Part shown: positions 4,356-29,039 of the stretch, piece after piece
Layout of the letters: each line of letters starts with the position of its first letter
Position numbering within the stretch: position 1 is the stretch's first letter
Virus record (IMG/VR): IMGVR_UViG_3300048833_000111
Span: 1 to 64,000 of that record
Length of the DNA stretch: 64,000 nucleotides
Reading direction: 5' to 3' (one strand)
Source: a virus
Notes under the pieces: model-generated
Seen by the model: the letters and a program-made list of their open reading frames with translations, nothing else
What the model was told of the DNA's origin: nothing
Database searches by the model: none
Position numbers and translations under genes: made by a program

Positions 4356-5006
4356 TTATTGTATTTGTAACATTTTAGGCACATCTTCTTGTAAATGTTT
4401 CATCAATTGAGTAACATTCTTGAACTTAGGTTCCTCATAATTATTTTGAAATAACCATTCATTTATTCTTGAAGTTTGAACTACATCCATACCCAAATTT
4501 TTCAATGGGTCTATATACATTTCACCTACTTTTTTTCTTATATTTTTTAGCTCAGTTGTAGTATCAAAAGCATTATTAATAAATAAGGTAAATTTAGTTA
4601 TATCAGGATTACTTTCAATCTCACTTATAGGAGTATTTATAATATATTCTGAATTTATACCCAGACATACATATACAATATCACCTTTATAAATTATACC
4701 TCTATGTAAATTTACATACATATCCCTACCTCTTAATTTATAATTATATCTTATTGGTTGTCCAGTTGTAGATATAGTATTAAGTAGATGTGCATATTGT
4801 CTCACATAAGTATTGGGATTAGCATCCCCAGGTAATGAATATTCAATTAATCTTACACCACTTTCTTCAAATTCCACTAATTCATGTGCAAATAAAGAAT
4901 AAAATGGTACAAACATGTTACAATCAGAAGTTCCCATCAATCTAGTTCTATAATGCATTGGATTATATTGATTACTATTAAATTGAAAAGAAATTAAATT
5001 TCTCAT
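4356..5006 (-). CDS. Unknown protein at the end of the ubiquitin-like cassette (216 aa)
   Basis: It overlaps the ThiF gene by 4 bases, so it is probably co-translated with the conjugation cassette. No recognised family. Visible pieces are TSDCNMFVPFYSLFAHELVEFEESGVRLIEYSLPGD in the N-terminal third, VYVCLGINSEYIINTP in the middle (a likely beta-rich core) and a helical C-terminus. Two cysteines (in SDCNMF and YVCLG) are possible functional residues. It could be a substrate, an adaptor or a second E2-like fold; nothing in the sequence decides. The tight coupling is the main reason to link it to the cassette. Confidence 0.6.
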   Translation of the reverse strand: MRNLISFQFNSNQYNPMHYRTRLMGTSDCNMFVPFYSLFAHELVEFEESGVRLIEYSLPGDANPNTYVRQYAHLLNTISTTGQPIRYNYKLRGRDMYVNLHRGIIYKGDIVYVCLGINSEYIINTPISEIESNPDITKFTLFINNAFDTTTELKNIRKKVGEMYIDPLKNLGMDVVQTSRINEWLFQNNYEEPKFKNVTQLMKHLQEDVPKMLQIQ

Positions 5007-5752
5007 TGTTCTTGTTTTATTGGGTTAACTTCTTCATTTAAGTAATTAATAGGTATAAAATATTCCCATTTAAAAGGAACTATTCTATCATCTTCTCCAA
5101 TTACATTATTTGCATAATGGTTAGTAAAAAATCCCACCATATGTGATGCAATCATTGCTGCTGAGTGAGAGGTTTGCTTTAGAGTACAAGGTGCTTCCAT
5201 AACTTCAGAATCATCAAAAAGATATTGTTCATAATCTTCCATAGTTTCTGGAGTCACACAAAAGATAGTAAGTTGTTCCATAAGTAATCTACCATCTACA
5301 AATATAGGTATATTCTTATCTTTATCTTCTGCACCAGCTACAAGATTTACATCTTGCCAATCTTTTACATATTCTTTCCAATTTGCAAACATATCTTTCC
5401 TTGCTTGCATATTATCAAATGCTGAGAATACATAATGGTGACTCATAGAATCCTTAGTGTATCTCATATTGTTTGCCATTATATCTACATCTGCAAAATG
5501 TTTACATAAACCTTTTAATGCTTCTACTTTAGGTGCATTTTTCTCTGCATCCTCTTTTGTAAACAATTGACCTCCAATATTATGTTCTTCAATATTGTCA
5601 AAGTCAAACACTATAGGCTGAAAACCTGCTCTAGCTAACATTAGGGATAACCAAGAGCCTATTCCCCCAGCTCCCCCTACTATCACATGTATTGTCTGTT
5701 CTTTAGGATACCAAGGAGCATCTTTAAATCTACTTGCTTGTACTTGATTCAT
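5003..5752 (-). CDS. ThiF/E1-like ubiquitin-activating enzyme
   Basis: A Rossmann adenylation domain is clear: IHVIVGGAGGIGSW (residues 21-34, glycine-rich loop), FDFDNIEEHNIGGQLF (about 49-64, acidic strand end and the N-x3-Q element), and FSAFDNMQARKDMF (about 109-122, the DN-x2-AR motif). C189 in EAPCTLKQTSHSAAM is the best candidate for the thioester cysteine. At 249 aa it is short, without the C-terminal domains of eukaryotic E1. It would adenylate the C-terminus of the Ubl at 8091-8522 using ATP. It is coupled to the JAB gene (22-base overlap). MoeB/ThiF sulfur transfer is the alternative, but the E2-like and JAB neighbours favour protein conjugation. Confidence 0.82.
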   Translation of the reverse strand: MNQVQASRFKDAPWYPKEQTIHVIVGGAGGIGSWLSLMLARAGFQPIVFDFDNIEEHNIGGQLFTKEDAEKNAPKVEALKGLCKHFADVDIMANNMRYTKDSMSHHYVFSAFDNMQARKDMFANWKEYVKDWQDVNLVAGAEDKDKNIPIFVDGRLLMEQLTIFCVTPETMEDYEQYLFDDSEVMEAPCTLKQTSHSAAMIASHMVGFFTNHYANNVIGEDDRIVPFKWEYFIPINYLNEEVNPIKQEQ

Positions 5753-22035: not shown

Positions 22036-22111
22036 TACTACCACTAAGATTCGAACTTAGGACCTATTGCGTGTAAAACAATTGCTCTGAACCAGACTGA
22101 GCTATGGTAGT
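22036..22111 (-). tRNA. tRNA-Val (TAC)
   Basis: Acceptor ACTACCA/TGGTAGT, anticodon arm ATTGT-TTTACAC-GCAAT, T arm CTAAGTTCGAATCTTAG. Confidence 0.92.
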
Positions 22112-22117
22112 ATATTG

Positions 22118-22193
22118 TGGACTCTACAGGATTTGAACCTATGACCTTCTCGTTATGAGCGAGTTGCTACTAACCAAGCTGAGCTAAGAGTCC
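22118..22193 (-). tRNA. tRNA-Met (CAT), second copy
   Basis: Acceptor GGACTCT/AGAGTCC, anticodon loop CTCATAA, T arm ATAGGTTCAAATCCTGT. It may be elongator Met or Ile2 after lysidine modification. Confidence 0.88.
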
Positions 22194-22203
22194 ATTAATA
22201 AAG

Positions 22204-22276
22204 AAAGGAGAAATTGAGAAGAGTTTATTTTGTGCAAATTATATATTAGCGAAGTAACTCTTCTCTTACTACCTTT
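22204..22276 (-). repeat. CGAAGTAA hairpin element, copy 4 (no tRNA inside)
   Basis: Outer helix AAAGG (22204-22208)/CCTTT (22272-22276), 10-bp inner helix GAGAAGAGTT (22216-22225)/AACTCTTCTC (22256-22265), motif CGAAGTAA at 22250-22257. About 30 nt inside, no tRNA parts. Confidence 0.7.
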
Positions 22277-22286
22277 AAATATTTTG

Positions 22287-22358
22287 AGGACTGTGGAGGA
22301 TTCGAACCTCCAACCATTTGCTTAACAGGCAAAAGCTCTACCCTTGAGCTAACAATCC
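22287..22358 (-). tRNA. tRNA-Asn (GTT)
   Basis: Acceptor GGATTGT/ACAGTCC, anticodon arm TTTGC-CTGTTAA-GCAAA, T arm GGAGGTTCGAATCCTCC. Confidence 0.92.
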
Positions 22359-22362
22359 AATT

Positions 22363-22567
22363 AAAAGAGAGAATAAAATAATAAGGATATAGATGTTTTG
22401 ATTCCATATCTAGAAAGAATGTTCCTAAAATACCCTTTAGTATAGGTAGAATAAAGTTTCAATTAGTTTTTCCTTTATTCAACTGTTCTTACGTCATATT
22501 TAGTATGTTCAGGCATATGCCTGTAATATAAAAATTTACGAAGTAACTTATTACTAACTACTCTTTT
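22363..22567 (-). repeat. CGAAGTAA hairpin element, copy 5 (encloses about 160 nt of structured RNA)
   Basis: Outer helix AAAAGAG (22363-22369)/CTCTTTT (22561-22567), inner helix TAATAAG (22379-22385)/CTTATTA (22547-22553), motif CGAAGTAA at 22539-22546. The loop holds perfect hairpins (GAATAAAG/CTTTATTC, CAGGCATATGCCTG, TAGAT/ATCTA) but no tRNA T loop. Confidence 0.65.
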
Positions 22568-22569
22568 AG

Positions 22570-22643
22570 TGAAGATAGAAGGATTCGAACCTACAACCCT
22601 CATCTTAGAAGGATGATGCTCTATCCAATTGAGCTATATCTCC
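22570..22643 (-). tRNA. tRNA-Arg (TCT)
   Basis: Acceptor GGAGATA/TATCTTC, anticodon arm TCATC-CTTCTAA-GATGA, T arm GTAGGTTCGAATCCTTC (one weak pair). Reads AGA, by far the main Arg codon of these genes. Confidence 0.92.
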
Positions 22644-22706
22644 AATTGTACATTTTAATGAGATGTACTAACTCTTACTATCCAATATGTCAATGAGCTT
22701 ACATTG

Positions 22707-22779
22707 AGCTACAAGTAGGACTCGAACCTACAACTGCTAGTTTACAAAACTAGTATTCTACCAATTGAATTATTATAGC
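22707..22779 (-). tRNA. tRNA-Thr (TGT)
   Basis: Acceptor GCTATAA/TTGTAGC, anticodon arm CTAGT-TTTGTAA-ACTAG, T arm GTAGGTTCGAGTCCTAC. Confidence 0.92.
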
Positions 22780-22781
22780 AT

Positions 22782-22910
22782 AAAAGAGGGAAATTTAACA
22801 AACTTGTGAGATTTCTCTCGGATGGATTTGAACCACCAACAGATTGTGTATGAAACAATTACTCTACCAATTGAGTTACGAAGTAAGTTTGCTATTACCA
22901 CCCTTATATT
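22782..22910 (-). repeat. CGAAGTAA hairpin element, copy 6 (encloses permuted tRNA-Met)
   Basis: Inner helix CAAACTT (22799-22805)/AAGTTTG (22885-22891), weaker outer helix using GGG/CCC, motif CGAAGTAA at 22879-22886. Confidence 0.7.
22808..22881 (-). tRNA. Circularly permuted tRNA-Met (CAT), break in the acceptor stem
   Basis: On the minus strand: TCG-TA, D arm ACTCAATTGGTAGAGT, anticodon arm ATTGT-TTCATAC-ACAAT, T arm GGTGGTTCAAATCCATC, acceptor CGAGAGA, then AA, then TCTC. The bases before TCG (ACTTAC) do not pair with CGAGAGA, but joining the trailing TCTC to TCG gives TCTCTCG, a perfect 7-bp acceptor. The mature length would be about 73 nt. The permuted reading is inferred by analogy with the Lys and Leu copies. 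Confidence 0.6.
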
Positions 22911-22918
22911 TTATTTTG

Positions 22919-22991
22919 CGGATTATAAGAGATTCGAACTCTTAGCACTACATAGACAGTGTAGCATGTTAACCATTGACACCAATAATCC
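22919..22991 (-). tRNA. tRNA-Asp (GTC)
   Basis: Acceptor GGATTAT/ATAATCC, anticodon arm CTACA-CTGTCTA-TGTAG, T arm AAGAGTTCGAATCTCTT. The 5' end overlaps the last codons of the HNH gene at 22969-23490. Confidence 0.92.
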
Positions 22992-23490
22992 TTATTATTT
23001 CTAACATCTGTTCATGTGTCATAGAATTTTTTAAATGATTCATAGCAACACTAATAAACTGGATATTATCTTTGTGATAACCTTTAGAAGAATCTATTCT
23101 ATCTAAACTAATAGTATAAATAGGGTCATTCTTTTTATTATTATCAGATTCTGAAAGTTTTACTTTAGAATAAACACATATTCCTTTTTGTTTATCCCAA
23201 ACTTCTTTCATTTGTTCTAATGTTAAAGAACAATCTTGTTTTCTATAACAAGCTCTTCTTAAATGAGGTCTAAACAATGTAAATTCATCTCTTCTGTTTC
23301 CAGGATTAAGATGTTCTACATTTCTCTCTACACCATCTAAATTAGAAATATTAGCTATTCCTAAGCAAGTTCTAGAACAGTAATTTTTTCTATTTAACTT
23401 TAAGTTTCTTTTAATTTCAGAAACATCTTTATTAAATAAGGTGTTGCAACCATCACATTTTATTTCTTGTTGTTTTCTTATGTATTTCAT
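22969..23490 (-). CDS. HNH endonuclease with N-terminal zinc ribbon
   Basis: Start chosen at ATG 23490 (MKYIRKQQEIKCDGCNTLFN), 4 bases after a promoter box. The N-terminus has CDGC and YCSRTCLG zinc ligands. The C-terminal half shows GICVYSKVKLSES, YTISLDRIDSSKGYHKDNIQ and FISVAMNHLKNSMT, an HNH variant with SLDRID-x-N typical of phage endonucleases next to introns. The stop codon lies inside tRNA-Asp, as the other HNH gene ends inside tRNA-Pro. It probably spreads itself by cutting cognate sites in related phages. Confidence 0.8.
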   Translation of the reverse strand: MKYIRKQQEIKCDGCNTLFNKDVSEIKRNLKLNRKNYCSRTCLGIANISNLDGVERNVEHLNPGNRRDEFTLFRPHLRRACYRKQDCSLTLEQMKEVWDKQKGICVYSKVKLSESDNNKKNDPIYTISLDRIDSSKGYHKDNIQFISVAMNHLKNSMTHEQMLEIIRIIGVNG

Positions 23491-23494
23491 AATA

Positions 23495-23525
23495 CAAAGA
23501 TACAAATTAATTGTGGAATACACAA
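23495..23525 (-). promoter_or_regulatory. Promoter of the second HNH gene (TTG-N20-TATCTTTG)
   Basis: TATCTTTG lies at 23502-23495 on the minus strand with TTG 20 bases upstream. The ATG follows after 4 bases, giving a nearly leaderless transcript. Confidence 0.6.
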
Positions 23526-23543
23526 GAAATATTTTTGTGGAAG

Positions 23544-23907
23544 TGGAGATGTGCGGACTCGAACCGCAGTCTTTAATACTCCTATATATAATACTTTATA
23601 CAGCTTATTCTCCAACACTTATTTAAAGACTCTGTTGGGACAGTCTATGAAATCAAATCGCTAGTTAGCTTATGCAGCTATTGCAACCTGTCTTGTTCCC
23701 CAAGATAAATCTTGAGAAGGAGATACAGATTTTCTCTCTCCTTTGTGTACTACCATCATTGGAGTACTAAATGTGTAGTTTATATCAACTACTTCTTGTG
23801 CATCATTATCAATGTTTCCATTTATTCAATTCACCTTAGTTTTAACCAGTTATCTCTCTGGGCTGAATATTATATAAGTCTTACCAAATCAAATCCAGGT
23901 CATCCCC
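23544..23907 (-). ncRNA. ssrA: tmRNA with an unusually long tag reading frame
   Basis: The minus strand starts GGGGATGACCTGGATTTGAT, close to the bacterial tmRNA 5' end, and ends TGCGGTTCGAGTCCGCA-CATCTCC; acceptor GGGGATG/CATCTCC pairs in 7 positions. The segment before the T arm (TAAGCTGTATAAAG...AAAGACT) matches the tRNA-like domain, with helix AGTCTTTA/TAAAGACT. Total length 364 nt, like E. coli. A frame ending GCA ATA GCT GCA TAA (23670) gives a tag ending RQVAIAA. It is open back to at least GCA at 23799-23801, implying about 43 residues. Hairpins normally formed after the tag seem to be inside it. Confidence 0.85.
23670..23801 (-). CDS. Probable tmRNA tag-encoding segment (up to about 43 aa)
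   Basis: The only frame through this tmRNA that ends in a hydrophobic-Ala-Ala tail reads AQEVVDINY at its start and RQVAIAA-stop at its end. The other two frames stop at TAG or TGA within about 20 bases of the likely resume site and do not end in AA. The true resume codon cannot be fixed by eye; the frame is open from a TGA about 27 bases further upstream. Typical tags have 8-35 residues. Confidence 0.5.
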   Translation of the reverse strand, partial: AQEVVDINYTFSTPMMVVHKGERKSVSPSQDLSWGTRQVAIAA

Positions 23908-24850: not shown

Positions 24851-26566
24851 TTATATTACTACTCTTTTCACTTTTTCTAAGTGATGGGCAGCATTGAATT
24901 CAGATGTAGCAATATCATCAAACATTGCATATCCGTATCCATAGTAATATCTTACCTTATCTCCTGCAATACAGTTAGTACCATATCCAGCTAAGTCAAC
25001 TGAATATACATAAGGATTGCCTGATTTCTCAACATACCCCATATAGCTCTTATAGCTATTGCCAATATTACATTCATTATCAGATAAGATAAATACTCTA
25101 GTATATTTATTACCAGAAGCATTTGCAGTATTCCAAGCTGATGCTAAACTAGTTCCTCCCATATTTGCACTACTTAAGTTTTTAGCTAAAGTAAATACAT
25201 CAACATTGGGATTATACTGCACATATTTAGCAGAAGAACCAAATACAATTATATCTGCATTGGTAGCTATTGCTATTGTAGCTGCAACAAGTGCTGCTTT
25301 ATGTGCGCATAATACACCAATCTTACCATTAGGTAGTCTAATAGGAGTATGCATAGAACCAGATTGGTCCAAGAATATACAGTTATTTCCTGGTAGCATT
25401 TCTGCTAAATTAGGAATAGCTTCAATATATCCTTTAGCTAATGCCTGTGATATTTGTCTAGAGTAAGGAGTATTAAACTCAGAGAGCATAATATCATTTG
25501 CCAAATCTAGTTGATATGGCATTATTTTTCCTTCTCTAATCAATCTTGGATTGGAAACTAATTCACACACCTTACTGACAGTATCTGGGTCTGGGTTATT
25601 GATAAGAATGTTTCTTAAATTTCTCAAACAAGCCAGTATACCCAGTTTGTTTGTATCAAGAAGTTCTTTCCAATTATCAGATTTTGCCTGCTTTAAGACT
25701 TGCTCTGCTTCATCTTTATCCAACTTACCTTCCTTAACAGCTTTTGCTACAATTTGTCCTGCTTCTCCTTGGTTAACTTCCCAAGTATTTGCTGACACAT
25801 TGTAACCTCTCATTATTGCATCTAAAGTATAGACATCTTTATCCTCATATTTAACTATAGCACCTGATTTTTCTCCAGATGGGTGTGTTAAATTGATTAC
25901 ATCTATAAGTTTAGATTTGTATTTCAATAATGAATAAGTGTCGATAGATTCCAAAGCATCTTTGAAACCTTTCTTCATAGCATTTGTAAGCTTTGTACCA
26001 CTTACATTTACTTCACTACTTGTTTCTCCAGTCCTGTGATTTACCACAGTAGTAGTTTTATATTCCCCATTAAGGGCAACAAAACCTGCAATAATTTCAG
26101 ACATATCATCAGGTCTGAATATTACTCCACCTTTTTCTTTTTTCTTATCCCATAGACCATAAAATCTCTTTCCAAACTCTTGTCCTGAAAGATGTGGGGC
26201 AATAAATACAGATGCTGCGTGAGAGATAGTTCTCATACCTTCTCCTAAGCATCTAGAATAAACTATACATTGACAAGTTAAGTACAGATTTTCTGTAGCA
26301 CATTCCCTAATTAGACTTTCTAGTTCTACTAGTGTCTGTTTATCAGTTCTGTAATACTGGTTCTGTAATTTTAATGTGTTAAGCATAGTTAACAATTTCA
26401 ACCATTTATCTTGTGTATGGGCAGGTAATCCCTGTCTATTTACAGTATCTGGTTTTGGAATAGCTCTTGAGGCTACTAAGTTTTCTTTAGGTTTCTTCTG
26501 ACCTATAACTCCTGCTAATTTTGAGTTTGTTTTTGACATATTCAGTTCAATTTTATATGTTGACAA
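24851..26566 (-). CDS. Ro60/Rsr-like TROVE-domain RNA-binding protein
   Basis: The first 370 residues form the HEAT-like TROVE ring (DKWLKLLTMLNTLKLQNQYY, then RTDKQ; CIVYSRCLGEGMRTISHAAS, FRPDDMSEIIAGFVAL). The C-terminal third is a vWA domain with an intact MIDAS DxSxS: FLDQSGSM (D400, S402, S404), then GGTSLASAW and LSDNE. This is the architecture of Ro60, which binds misfolded RNAs and Y RNAs. At 571 aa it is the full usual length. Bacterial homologues act with tRNA-like YrlA RNAs and nucleases. It is flanked by hairpins and lies next to the MoxR/vWA genes and the tRNA/tmRNA array, suggesting RNA quality control or handling of the structured RNAs here. Confidence 0.9.
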   Translation of the reverse strand: MSTYKIELNMSKTNSKLAGVIGQKKPKENLVASRAIPKPDTVNRQGLPAHTQDKWLKLLTMLNTLKLQNQYYRTDKQTLVELESLIRECATENLYLTCQCIVYSRCLGEGMRTISHAASVFIAPHLSGQEFGKRFYGLWDKKKEKGGVIFRPDDMSEIIAGFVALNGEYKTTTVVNHRTGETSSEVNVSGTKLTNAMKKGFKDALESIDTYSLLKYKSKLIDVINLTHPSGEKSGAIVKYEDKDVYTLDAIMRGYNVSANTWEVNQGEAGQIVAKAVKEGKLDKDEAEQVLKQAKSDNWKELLDTNKLGILACLRNLRNILINNPDPDTVSKVCELVSNPRLIREGKIMPYQLDLANDIMLSEFNTPYSRQISQALAKGYIEAIPNLAEMLPGNNCIFLDQSGSMHTPIRLPNGKIGVLCAHKAALVAATIAIATNADIIVFGSSAKYVQYNPNVDVFTLAKNLSSANMGGTSLASAWNTANASGNKYTRVFILSDNECNIGNSYKSYMGYVEKSGNPYVYSVDLAGYGTNCIAGDKVRYYYGYGYAMFDDIATSEFNAAHHLEKVKRVVI

Positions 26567-26567
26567 T

Positions 26568-26596
26568 TTTAAAGGGGAGTTTTCCTCCCCTTTAAA
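26568..26596 (-). terminator. Hairpin before the Ro60 gene (AAAGGGGAG/CTCCCCTTT)
   Basis: Perfect 9-bp inverted repeat with a 5-nt loop between the acidic protein gene and Ro60, flanked by T and A runs. It shares the GGGGAG stem with the hairpins at 8050 and 24823. Confidence 0.55.
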
Positions 26597-26603
26597 TTGG
26601 TTA

Positions 26604-27032
26604 TTACCATCTAAATTTCTTTTTCACTTTAATAAGTAGATTATCATCTTCCTTTAATTCCTCTATAGAAGGAACATTAAAGAAATCTTCTTCATCTTCA
26701 TCTTTAGGATGTGGATTCCAATGATGTGTAGGTATAGTTGGATGAAAGAAACTATCTGGAATATCTTTGGATGTTCCTTTTTGATTTTTTAAAGTACTAT
26801 CAGAACTATCTGATTGTCCTTTACCACTTCCATCTCCACTTCCATCTCCTTCATTGCCCTCTCCTTCTAATTTAAAATAGGTCTTATCTATTATGATTTC
26901 ATCTGGCTCATCACAAAAATCCTTCTTAGCTTTTTTAAGAAGTTCCAATTGTCTTTCAGTATGTGTTTTTTTAGGAGGTATATTACCTTTAAAAACATTA
27001 TACTTATCTGTTGATTCTACATCTATTATCAT
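26604..27032 (-). CDS. Acidic low-complexity protein of the MoxR/Ro60 module (142 aa)
   Basis: A Lys/Glu-rich N-terminus (PPKKTHTERQLELLKKAKKD) is followed by a Gly/Ser/Asp tract (GEGNEGDGSGDGSGKGQSDS) and an acidic region with DEDEEDFFNVP. It overlaps the vWA-like gene by 4 bases. Such disordered acidic linker proteins occur in MoxR/vWA operons, where they may bridge the ATPase and vWA partner. No enzymatic motif is visible. Confidence 0.6.
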   Translation of the reverse strand: MIIDVESTDKYNVFKGNIPPKKTHTERQLELLKKAKKDFCDEPDEIIIDKTYFKLEGEGNEGDGSGDGSGKGQSDSSDSTLKNQKGTSKDIPDSFFHPTIPTHHWNPHPKDEDEEDFFNVPSIEELKEDDNLLIKVKKKFRW

Positions 27033-27886
27033 CCTAAACCTATTTTTAAAATTCTACTTACCATTTCTCTTTGCTCTTCATTATCTCCTGGTATCCTAAG
27101 TGTATTACCTCCTATGATATCATATCTAGAAGATAAATCTTCTATTAACCTCTTCTCAGGTAAGAAAGTACCTATACTTCTTTGTATACCTGATGCAGAA
27201 TAACCATTAAATAATGTTGTACTAAAGAACTCTCTGTGTGAGCAAGCTAAAATATTCTTTAAGTTTAATTTTTCACTGGACTTAGCTACATTACATATAA
27301 CATATCCCATTCCATTTCCAATTGCATAAGTATCAGAATCAAACATATCAATATTTACATTGATATTCATTGCCTGACACATAAGTATTGTTTTAAGTAT
27401 TTTTACAAAAGATTTTGTATAATCCCCTCCTACAAAAGTACCTACTTGAAAAGCTAAATTTAAAGTTAACTTCTTTGCTCCTGGTCTCCCCCTCTTGAAT
27501 ATCTTTTCAGAATTAGAGGCATAATGTGGCATAGAAAGATTACCCTCAAATCTATTGAGGGTAAATTCTCTTTTTGAAGACTTTGCTTTATATACCAATT
27601 CTAGAAAATCCTTATCAACAGACATATCTTTCATAGCTATATTAATAATTTTCTGCTTGTGAGCAGTCAATATATTTCTATCTCTAAAATATTCTCTATG
27701 ATTGGATAAGTAATATGATATATCTCCACCATGTTGGATATCTCTTTTTAAAGCAATTCCATCAGGGTTGTTAGCAGGAATATCATACCAAAATATATCT
27801 GATAAATTATCAAATCTAATTAGTTTACTTCCTGATTCTAAAGTAGTATAAAGCACCTTTGGCTTAGGAATAGAAGAATCAAACAT
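27029..27886 (-). CDS. vWA-like partner of the MoxR ATPase (285 aa)
   Basis: Start chosen at ATG 27886 (MFDSSIPKPKVLYTTLESGS), just after the MoxR stop. The central block KKLTLNLAFQVGTFVGGDYT, then KSFVKILKTILMCQAMNINV and NIDMFDSDTYA, looks like a vWA Rossmann core whose MIDAS residues are not canonical. Pairing with a MoxR ATPase is typical for metal-insertion or protein-remodelling modules. Here the acidic protein and Ro60 follow, so the remodelling may act on a Ro60 ribonucleoprotein. The fold call is moderate. Confidence 0.55.
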   Translation of the reverse strand: MFDSSIPKPKVLYTTLESGSKLIRFDNLSDIFWYDIPANNPDGIALKRDIQHGGDISYYLSNHREYFRDRNILTAHKQKIINIAMKDMSVDKDFLELVYKAKSSKREFTLNRFEGNLSMPHYASNSEKIFKRGRPGAKKLTLNLAFQVGTFVGGDYTKSFVKILKTILMCQAMNINVNIDMFDSDTYAIGNGMGYVICNVAKSSEKLNLKNILACSHREFFSTTLFNGYSASGIQRSIGTFLPEKRLIEDLSSRYDIIGGNTLRIPGDNEEQREMVSRILKIGLG

Positions 27887-27887
27887 A

Positions 27888-29039
27888 TTAATAATATAAA
27901 TCTCTATCACTTGCAGCTACTAGAGGTCTATCACCTTTTTGCATCCTAGCTAAAGCCTTTGCAACTTGTTCGTCTCTAGATATCTGTTGTGGATTCCTAT
28001 ACTCAACTTGTGGTTCATTAGAAAAATTAATATTGTTATTAACCTTTCTAAATATATTAGACCTATCCTCTGTAGATAAATCCTGACATACCATATTAAG
28101 AATTCTTTTGCTGGTATAACCAGCATTGATTAAAATAGATATATCTTCTACATTTCTGGTAGATAGATAATTACCTATTTCTTCAAAAGCATCTCTCATA
28201 GCTTCAACCCAAGGATAATAGTTACCCATAAGTTGTTTCTCCAATTGAATATGATATCCAATATGGTGTCTACAAAATCTAAATCTATCCATTAAAGCCA
28301 TATCTTGGAAATCCCTACCTGAATAATCAGTAGAGCCTTTCCCCCAAGTATTTCCACACATAACTAAATAAAAATCCTTGTGCTTTTTAGCTGTTGGATT
28401 ATCATCTCTATGTGGAATAGATATAAAGTTAGAATTATCTGCAATACCATTAAAGAATAGTGCCATATCTCCTGACATAGCATCATATTCATCTACTAAG
28501 AATAGACCACCATTTTCATATGCATTCAAGAAAGAAGTCTGTAAGTATACCTCAGATTTAGGTTGTTTATAACCTAATAAATCATGTACACTAGAGTCTC
28601 TAGAACAAGAATATTTATAAAAAGGTATGTTCATTCTTTTAGCTATTTCAGCTACCATATAAGTTTTACCAGTTCCTGCTGGTCCAACTAACATAGTTTT
28701 CTTTTGTATTACAAGGGATTTTACAACATCTTCCATTTTAGGATGGTCCATATGTTGTATTTCAATTTCAGAGGTATTGGGGAGAACTATTGTAGTTCTA
28801 CCTTTTACTATCTCTTCCATTATTTTATCCCGCATATTTCTTGCAGCATATTTTGCTGCATCTTTATGCTCTTTCAATATATTTTGAAGCTCTAGTCTCC
28901 ATTCATCTGAAGATTTAGATACATCAACATCAAAAGCAAGAATACTATCTTTCAATTTATCTTGAAAGATAGTATCTATTTCCTTTGCCAATCTATCTAA
29001 ATCAAATTCAGGTACTGCCTGTGATTTGATTTCATCCAT
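27888..29039 (-). CDS. MoxR/CbbQ-type AAA+ ATPase
   Basis: Walker A MLVGPAGTGKTYMVAEIA (about residues 115-132), then FYKYSCSRDSSVHDLLGYK, Walker B GLFLVDEYDAMSGDM, sensor 1 FYLVMCGNTWGKGS and an arginine finger region MALMDRFRFCRHH. This is the MoxR class of AAA+ remodelling ATPases. The N-terminal 100 residues are helical and may recognise the partner. It starts the module that continues with the vWA-like, acidic and Ro60 genes. Role inferred: ATP-driven remodelling of a protein or RNP complex. Confidence 0.85.
   Translation of the reverse strand: MDEIKSQAVPEFDLDRLAKEIDTIFQDKLKDSILAFDVDVSKSSDEWRLELQNILKEHKDAAKYAARNMRDKIMEEIVKGRTTIVLPNTSEIEIQHMDHPKMEDVVKSLVIQKKTMLVGPAGTGKTYMVAEIAKRMNIPFYKYSCSRDSSVHDLLGYKQPKSEVYLQTSFLNAYENGGLFLVDEYDAMSGDMALFFNGIADNSNFISIPHRDDNPTAKKHKDFYLVMCGNTWGKGSTDYSGRDFQDMALMDRFRFCRHHIGYHIQLEKQLMGNYYPWVEAMRDAFEEIGNYLSTRNVEDISILINAGYTSKRILNMVCQDLSTEDRSNIFRKVNNNINFSNEPQVEYRNPQQISRDEQVAKALARMQKGDRPLVAASDRDLYY

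What the first reader, a model, noticed from the sequence alone, without database searches (positions are those of the whole stretch)
24851..29039. Ro60 plus MoxR/vWA module next to the tRNA and tmRNA array
A full TROVE + vWA protein with intact MIDAS is followed upstream by an acidic linker protein, a vWA-like protein and a MoxR AAA+ ATPase. Ro60 proteins bind misfolded and tRNA-like RNAs; MoxR/vWA pairs remodel complexes. Together they suggest an ATP-driven Ro60 RNP machine acting on the many structured RNAs encoded nearby.
Basis: inference. Interest (0 to 1): 0.82.

Follow-up and report, generated by a model that had tools for sequence, protein, structure and literature searches.

The report
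Phage Ro60 with many Y-like RNAs
This phage carries the gene for a Ro60 ring protein and, scattered through its tRNA gene array, at least six small RNAs that share one stem structure and look like Ro60's partner 'Y RNAs' (many of them imitating tRNA), while the neighbouring ATPase genes turn out to be a separate machine.

Summary
The genes are real. Ro60 (24851-26539) belongs to the TROVE/Ro60 family by profile and fold. The three genes upstream are a MoxR-type AAA+ ATPase, a vWA-like protein lacking the metal site, and a short acidic protein. But the 'ATP-driven Ro60 machine' is not supported: the AAA+/vWA/acidic trio occurs as a unit in phages with no Ro60, and Ro60 occurs in large phage contigs with no trio. 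What does travel with Ro60 are the 'CGAAGTAA' elements. On the transcribed strand each is part of a structured RNA: outer stem P1, internal loop, stem P2, UUACUUCG, a variable module, ACA, P2', P1'. All 14 scored pairs show two-sided compensatory changes. The window has six well-folded copies plus one rearranged copy, between tRNA genes. Across 77 Ro60+ phage loci there are 119 well-formed copies on the Ro60 strand, none on the other, 0.2 expected. An exact-sequence scan of 2.9 million viral contigs with the RNA motif recovered Ro60 phages. Most modules are tRNA-like, in normal or permuted order; some give sub-threshold YrlA matches. Best reading: a multi-member phage Y-RNA-like set for Ro60. 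Ro60 binding itself is untested. New variant of a known kind.

The parts
24851..26539 (-). Ro60 / TROVE-vWA protein (start probably ATG at 26539; the listed ORF begins at TTG 26566)
26568..26596 (.). strong hairpin (12-15 bp) between the acidic-protein gene and Ro60; terminator- or leader-like, suggests the two gene groups need not be one transcription unit
   Evidence: z -5.5
26604..27032 (-). acidic linker protein, third member of the AAA+/vWA cassette (motif IDK[ST]YFK, acidic Ser/Gly-rich middle, basic-aromatic end)
   Evidence: found directly after vWA in loci with and without Ro60
27029..27910 (-). vWA-like protein without MIDAS residues, partner of the AAA+ protein
27888..29039 (-). MoxR/CobS/NorQ-type AAA+ ATPase
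22781..22908 (-). E1: Y-RNA-like element with normal-order tRNA-like module (ARAGORN calls it tRNA-Met(cat) 22812-22886)
   Evidence: z -2.4
22360..22570 (-). E2: Y-RNA-like element with a long (153 nt) apical module
22197..22281 (-). E3: Y-RNA-like element with short loop (26 nt)
   Evidence: z -3.3
21437..21567 (-). E4: rearranged element: tRNA-like RNA with acceptor GGGGAAG/CUUCCCC in which the Y-stem module seems to sit in place of the D arm
   Evidence: family-level, tentative for this copy
21285..21433 (-). E5: Y-RNA-like element with permuted tRNA-like module (T arm before D arm)
   Evidence: z -1.6
20486..20631 (-). E6: Y-RNA-like element with permuted tRNA-like module; sub-threshold Rfam YrlA match 20520-20585
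   Evidence: z -2.5
18436..18521 (-). E7: Y-RNA-like element with short loop (28 nt)
   Evidence: z -2.9
17808..22991 (-). tRNA array in which the elements are interspersed
23541..23907 (-). tmRNA
   Evidence: 60.6 bits

Best explanation
The phage encodes one Ro60 ring protein and a family of Y-RNA-like partners. Each RNA pairs its two ends into a bipartite stem (P1, internal loop with UAGYAA on the 5' side and ANYUUUCU on the 3' side, P2) followed by UUACUUCG; this shared part is inferred to be the Ro60-binding site. The variable apical module is the effector: permuted tRNA-like (as in YrlA), normal-order tRNA-like, or a short loop. By analogy with bacterial Y RNAs, each RNA would dock on the outer face of Ro60, gate its RNA-binding ring, and tether it to a different partner such as PNPase or tRNA-modifying enzymes, so that one Ro60 makes several RNPs that survey, degrade or protect structured RNA (host RNA and the phage's own tRNAs and tmRNA) during infection. 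The RNAs lie in spacers between tRNA genes and could be released by tRNA processing. The AAA+/vWA/acidic trio is a separate remodelling module. Shown here: RNA structure, its association with Ro60, Ro60 identity, independence of the trio. Inferred: Ro60 binding, tethering, function.
For: Covariation on 24 elements: 14 of 14 pairs change on both sides, score 0.881 against 0.255 shuffled (0/500) and at most 0.194 when slid. With the 3' strand located only by unpaired bases, at least 12 of 14 pairs form in 29 of 69 own strands against 1.8% of swapped ones. 119 well-formed elements on the Ro60 strand of 77 Ro60+ loci, 0 on the other strand, 0.2 in shuffles, 0 in eight loci with AAA+ and no nearby Ro60. 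Two motif-only scans of viral contigs gave 18 contigs; 14 encode Ro60, and the other four are either short (6.7-25 kb) or, in the 120 kb one, have the element 1.6 kb from the contig end. The same pattern in 257 Gb of cellular genomes gave 6 hits, none with the 3' strand. YrlA matches fall on elements in the window, L003, L007, L011. Unconstrained folds give P1 and P2. A cultured Rhizobium phage has about seven tandem units of the same plan directly upstream of its TROVE gene, with YrlA matches among them. An independent study of a Listeria phage found abundant noncoding RNAs close to an Rsr-like gene and proposed Y RNAs (PMC12282133).
Against: No binding data. All YrlA matches are below Rfam's gathering score (31-42 bits against 69). 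The elements share no clear sequence with the bacterial Y-RNA stem. Some distant Ro60 loci (44-49% identity tier) have almost none of these elements, and csAssE and a Vibrio phage show none by this motif. The Ro60 model is of moderate confidence (pLDDT 72, pTM 0.46).
Confidence: 0.8

Rival explanations
1. One reading: MoxR AAA+ and the vWA-like protein power or remodel the Ro60 RNP, so that the four genes are one machine.
For: The genes are adjacent in the window, and two close relatives carry both within about 4 kb. MoxR/vWA pairs are known remodelling chaperones (PMC7824862).
Against: Cassette without Ro60 in contigs of 178 and 106 kb; Ro60 plus elements without cassette in 68-207 kb contigs, including a 71%-identical Ro60 neighbour (L009); 30 kb apart in another. 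In relatives other genes lie between them. The acidic 'linker' belongs to the cassette, not to Ro60. A strong hairpin lies between the two groups.
Confidence: 0.07
2. The tRNA-like RNAs are decoys: they mimic tRNA to absorb host tRNA-cutting defences or tRNA-modifying enzymes, with Ro60 mainly stabilising them.
For: Most modules are tRNA-like. 'Anticodons' differ between relatives at one syntenic site (CAT in the window, TAG in L009, between tRNA-Asp and tRNA-Thr), so they do not decode. Wolin's group suggested YrlA could act as a competitive inhibitor of an anticodon nuclease (PMC7790460). The phage carries a near-complete tRNA set, as expected if tRNAs are attacked.
Against: About a quarter of the elements have only a short loop and no tRNA features. 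In Salmonella the YrlA tRNA-like domain was not cut by the anticodon nuclease.
Confidence: 0.25
3. The elements are signals for processing or regulating the long tRNA-array transcript and co-occur with Ro60 only because both sit in tRNA arrays.
For: They lie exactly in spacers between tRNAs.
Against: Elements follow Ro60 even in loci without detected tRNAs, for example L042 and L043 with three each. The motif occurs in almost no other viral contig although tRNA arrays are common in phages. They carry large tRNA-like inserts, unlike processing signals, and match YrlA.
Confidence: 0.08

Closest known systems
Bacterial Y RNAs / YrlA (Rfam RF02553) with Rsr (bacterial Ro60), as in Salmonella rsr-yrlBA and Deinococcus RYPER
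   Same: Encoded beside Ro60; ends pair into a bipartite stem with internal loop; YrlA-type permuted tRNA-like module (T arm before D arm); RNA length range
   Different: Six or seven copies per phage; shared UUACUUCG motif; normal-order tRNA-like, short-loop and possibly rearranged forms; scores below the Rfam cut-off; embedded in a tRNA array; no Rtc repair genes found among the proteins scanned
Phage Ro60/TROVE proteins (Thermus phage phiLo structure 9l5y; TROVE proteins of jumbo phages, PMC7824862; Rsr homologue of Listeria phage CKA15, PMC12282133)
   Same: Same protein family and fold; putative noncoding RNAs near the gene in CKA15
   Different: Here the candidate RNA partners are identified and their structure is supported by covariation
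MoxR-vWA pairs: NorQ/NorD, CobS/CobT, Rea1 MIDAS, jumbo-phage MoxR-vWA proposed for virion assembly (PMC7824862)
   Same: AAA+ gene directly followed by a vWA-like gene; best fold matches are NorD and Rea1/MDN1 vWA
   Different: vWA partner lacks MIDAS residues and has a separate acidic third protein; not tied to Ro60

Membership tests
Ro60 / TROVE | Sequence profile of Ro60/TROVE | tested here: met
   Pfam TROVE 25 bits over cut-off 23; family profile against solved Ro60s E 2e-19 to 7e-7
Ro60 / TROVE | HEAT-like ring closed by a vWA domain | tested here: met
   Top 13 Foldseek hits, all with E of 1e-8 or less, are Ro60/TROVE structures; model of moderate confidence
Ro60 / TROVE | MIDAS D-x-S-x-S, T, D in the vWA domain | tested here: met
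   D, S, S invariant in 11 sequences; T and D present in the window protein
Ro60 / TROVE | Binds Y RNA and misfolded RNA | not testable with these tools
   needs biochemistry
Bacterial Y RNA (general) | Encoded near a Ro60 gene | tested here: met
Bacterial Y RNA (general) | 5' and 3' ends pair into a lower stem with internal loop | tested here: met
   covariation; folds
Bacterial Y RNA (general) | At least one member with a tRNA-like module | tested here: met
   window E1, E5, E6
Bacterial Y RNA (general) | Bound by Ro60 | not testable with these tools
   needs pull-down or gel shift
YrlA (Rfam RF02553) | Score at or above the gathering cut-off (69 bits) | tested here: not met
   Best 31 bits in the window, 42.3 in L009: not filed as RF02553, only as YrlA-like
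MoxR/vWA pair | AAA+ with Walker A and B, adjacent vWA gene | tested here: met
MoxR/vWA pair | vWA partner with a MIDAS site | tested here: not met
   AFQVGTF in place of D-x-S-x-S, invariant in 8 sequences
MoxR/vWA pair | vWA fold of the partner | tested here: inconclusive
   NorD and Rea1 MIDAS domains rank first but at Z 5-6

The most novel reading that the evidence does not exclude
A phage RNP toolkit: one Ro60 serves a set of interchangeable RNAs built on one conserved docking stem onto which evolution has grafted tRNA-like modules in at least three topologies (normal, circularly permuted, and acceptor-ended with the docking stem replacing the D arm), giving the phage control over tRNA quality, decay or host tRNA-directed defence.
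Probability: 0.35. Interest if true: 0.85.

Novelty: new variant of a known kind. Interest (0 to 1): 0.7.

Why it matters
Bacterial Ro60 and Y RNAs have been studied in only a few species and their purpose in phages is unknown. A compact phage set of six or seven Y-like RNAs with different effector modules, plus a cultured Rhizobium phage with a tandem array next to its Ro60 gene, makes the long-standing question of what Y RNAs tether Ro60 to directly testable. It also warns that some phage 'tRNAs' called by standard programs are not tRNAs.

Tried and rejected
Treating the four genes as one module: rejected by distribution. Chance: rejected. YrlA-like match at 22618-22734 (E 2.5) and several in other loci: head-to-tail tRNA pairs, not counted. 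Element pattern in bacterial genomes: six chance hits without a 3' strand. csAssE and Vibrio phage phiKT1024 Ro60 regions: no element by this motif, motif may differ. Second YrlA-like RNA of L002/L009 (no UUACUUCG): no counterpart found in the window. Rearranged (class D) copies: acceptor stem covaries in three versions, but own-strand P2 is clearly formed in only about four of seven, so this topology is tentative. A simple own-versus-swapped helix count on the Rhizobium array was not discriminating for P2; its units were read by eye. vWA-like protein: no hit in cultured phages or in PDB sequences. RtcB or other RNA repair genes: none among the ten window proteins scanned, not exhaustive.
Full report
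What is there. The window is part of a 96,217-base virus record. Its terminase is 51% identical to that of Flavobacterium psychrophilum phages, with crAss-like phages among the further hits. Ro60 is genuine by profile, conserved MIDAS residues and fold. The AAA+ protein has Walker A and B and matches PHROG 249. The vWA-like protein lacks MIDAS residues in all eight relatives and its model is nearest to NorD and Rea1/MDN1 vWA domains, at modest Z.

The AAA+ genes are a separate module. In related viral contigs the AAA+ and vWA genes always sit together and are followed by the acidic protein with the motif IDK[ST]YFK or a close variant. This trio is found without Ro60 in contigs of 178 and 106 kb and in six shorter ones. 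Ro60 is found without it in contigs of 68-207 kb, including L009, whose Ro60 is 71% identical. Where both are present they can be separated by other genes or by about 30 kb.

The CGAAGTAA elements are RNA genes. The seven copies (0.18 expected) are all on one strand, reading TTACTTCG in the tRNA direction. Reading around them in relatives showed a constant plan: P1, an internal loop with TAGYAA, P2, TTACTTCG, a module of 16 to about 170 nt, ACA, P2', a loop A-N-Y-TTTCT, P1'. In a gap-free alignment of 24 elements every one of the 14 pairs has compensatory changes; covariation is 0.881 against 0.255 in shuffles, and drops to 0.19 or less when partners are slid by one to three columns. Because the 3' strands in that set were chosen partly by pairing, I repeated the test locating the 3' strand by unpaired bases only, with each genome left out: own strands reach at least 12 of 14 pairs in 29 of 69 cases, swapped strands in 1.8%. 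Unconstrained folding of six window elements gives P1 and P2 each time.

They go with Ro60. A profile search found 77 Ro60+ viral loci. They hold 119 well-formed elements on the Ro60 strand, none on the other; shuffled sequence gives 0.2. Starting instead from the RNA, an exact motif scan of 2.9 million viral contigs gave nine contigs, eight with Ro60; a second, different motif gave eleven, eight with Ro60. Of the 18 contigs in all, 14 encode Ro60; the four others are 6.7, 17.8 and 25 kb long, or have the element 1.6 kb from the end of a 120 kb contig. In the comparison set the elements occur in 16 of 16 Ro60+ records and in none of eight records with AAA+ but no Ro60. In 257 Gb of cellular genomes the motif occurs six times, never with the 3' strand.

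They look like Y RNAs. About 78 of 121 distinct elements contain tRNA arms, in permuted or normal order, and 31 have only short loops (the script's split between the two orders is approximate). Permuted ones in the window, L003, L007 and L011 give Rfam YrlA matches, but below the gathering score, so I do not file them as RF02553. The normal-order ones fool tRNA finders: in the window 'tRNA-Met(cat)' and in L009 'tRNA-Leu(tag)' stand at the same place between tRNA-Asp and tRNA-Thr, so the 'anticodon' is not under decoding constraint. The cultured Rhizobium phage RHph_Y65 has about seven units of the same plan directly upstream of its TROVE gene, with GTTGCGA and UACUUCG or variants, and YrlA matches. 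A further class, with acceptor GGGGAAG/CUUCCCC and in some phages an encoded CCA, appears to carry the docking stem in place of the D arm; window E4 belongs to it. This is tentative.

How it probably works. In bacteria the Y-RNA stem binds Ro60 while the tRNA-like domain binds PNPase, and YrlA is modified by DusA and TruB (PMC8394870). By analogy the phage's Ro60 would be loaded with several Y-like RNAs that gate it and tether it to different partners, acting on structured RNA during infection. A decoy role against tRNA-cutting defences is the main rival and not exclusive (PMC7790460). No step of binding or function has been tested here.

Novelty. Y RNAs near Ro60 in phages have been predicted before: mycobacteriophages (Chen et al. 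2014, as cited in PMC12282133), and a Listeria phage with abundant noncoding RNAs near an Rsr-like gene (PMC12282133). New here, as far as the held literature shows (the key Y-RNA papers themselves are not in the library), are the multi-member families with a shared docking stem supported by covariation, their spread over dozens of phages, and the variety of module topologies.

Noticed in passing
window 20034-20468 and 22969-23523 (-): Two ORFs that look like HNH-type endonucleases sit inside the tRNA/tmRNA array, possibly homing genes.
   Followed up: no
window 5003-5752 (-): ThiF/E1-like protein (Pfam ThiF E 1.8e-16) among unknown ORFs; possible modification or conjugation system.
   Followed up: no
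L005 5541-5963: GOLLD RNA (256 bits) beside the tRNA array and tmRNA of another Ro60 phage.
   Followed up: no
L011 5026-5184: Match to permuted tmRNA (64 bits) inside a phage tRNA array.
   Followed up: no
L002 17070-17193, L009 18551-18671: A second, conserved YrlA-like RNA without UUACUUCG (35-42 bits), perhaps another Y-RNA type.
   Followed up: partly
L111 4447-5640 (Rhizobium phage RHph_Y65): Tandem array of about seven Y-RNA-like units directly upstream of the TROVE gene in a cultured phage.
   Followed up: partly
L109 about 9523 (LR745206, 635 kb phage): Element with AUACUUCG about 500 bases upstream of a 30%-identical Ro60.
   Followed up: partly
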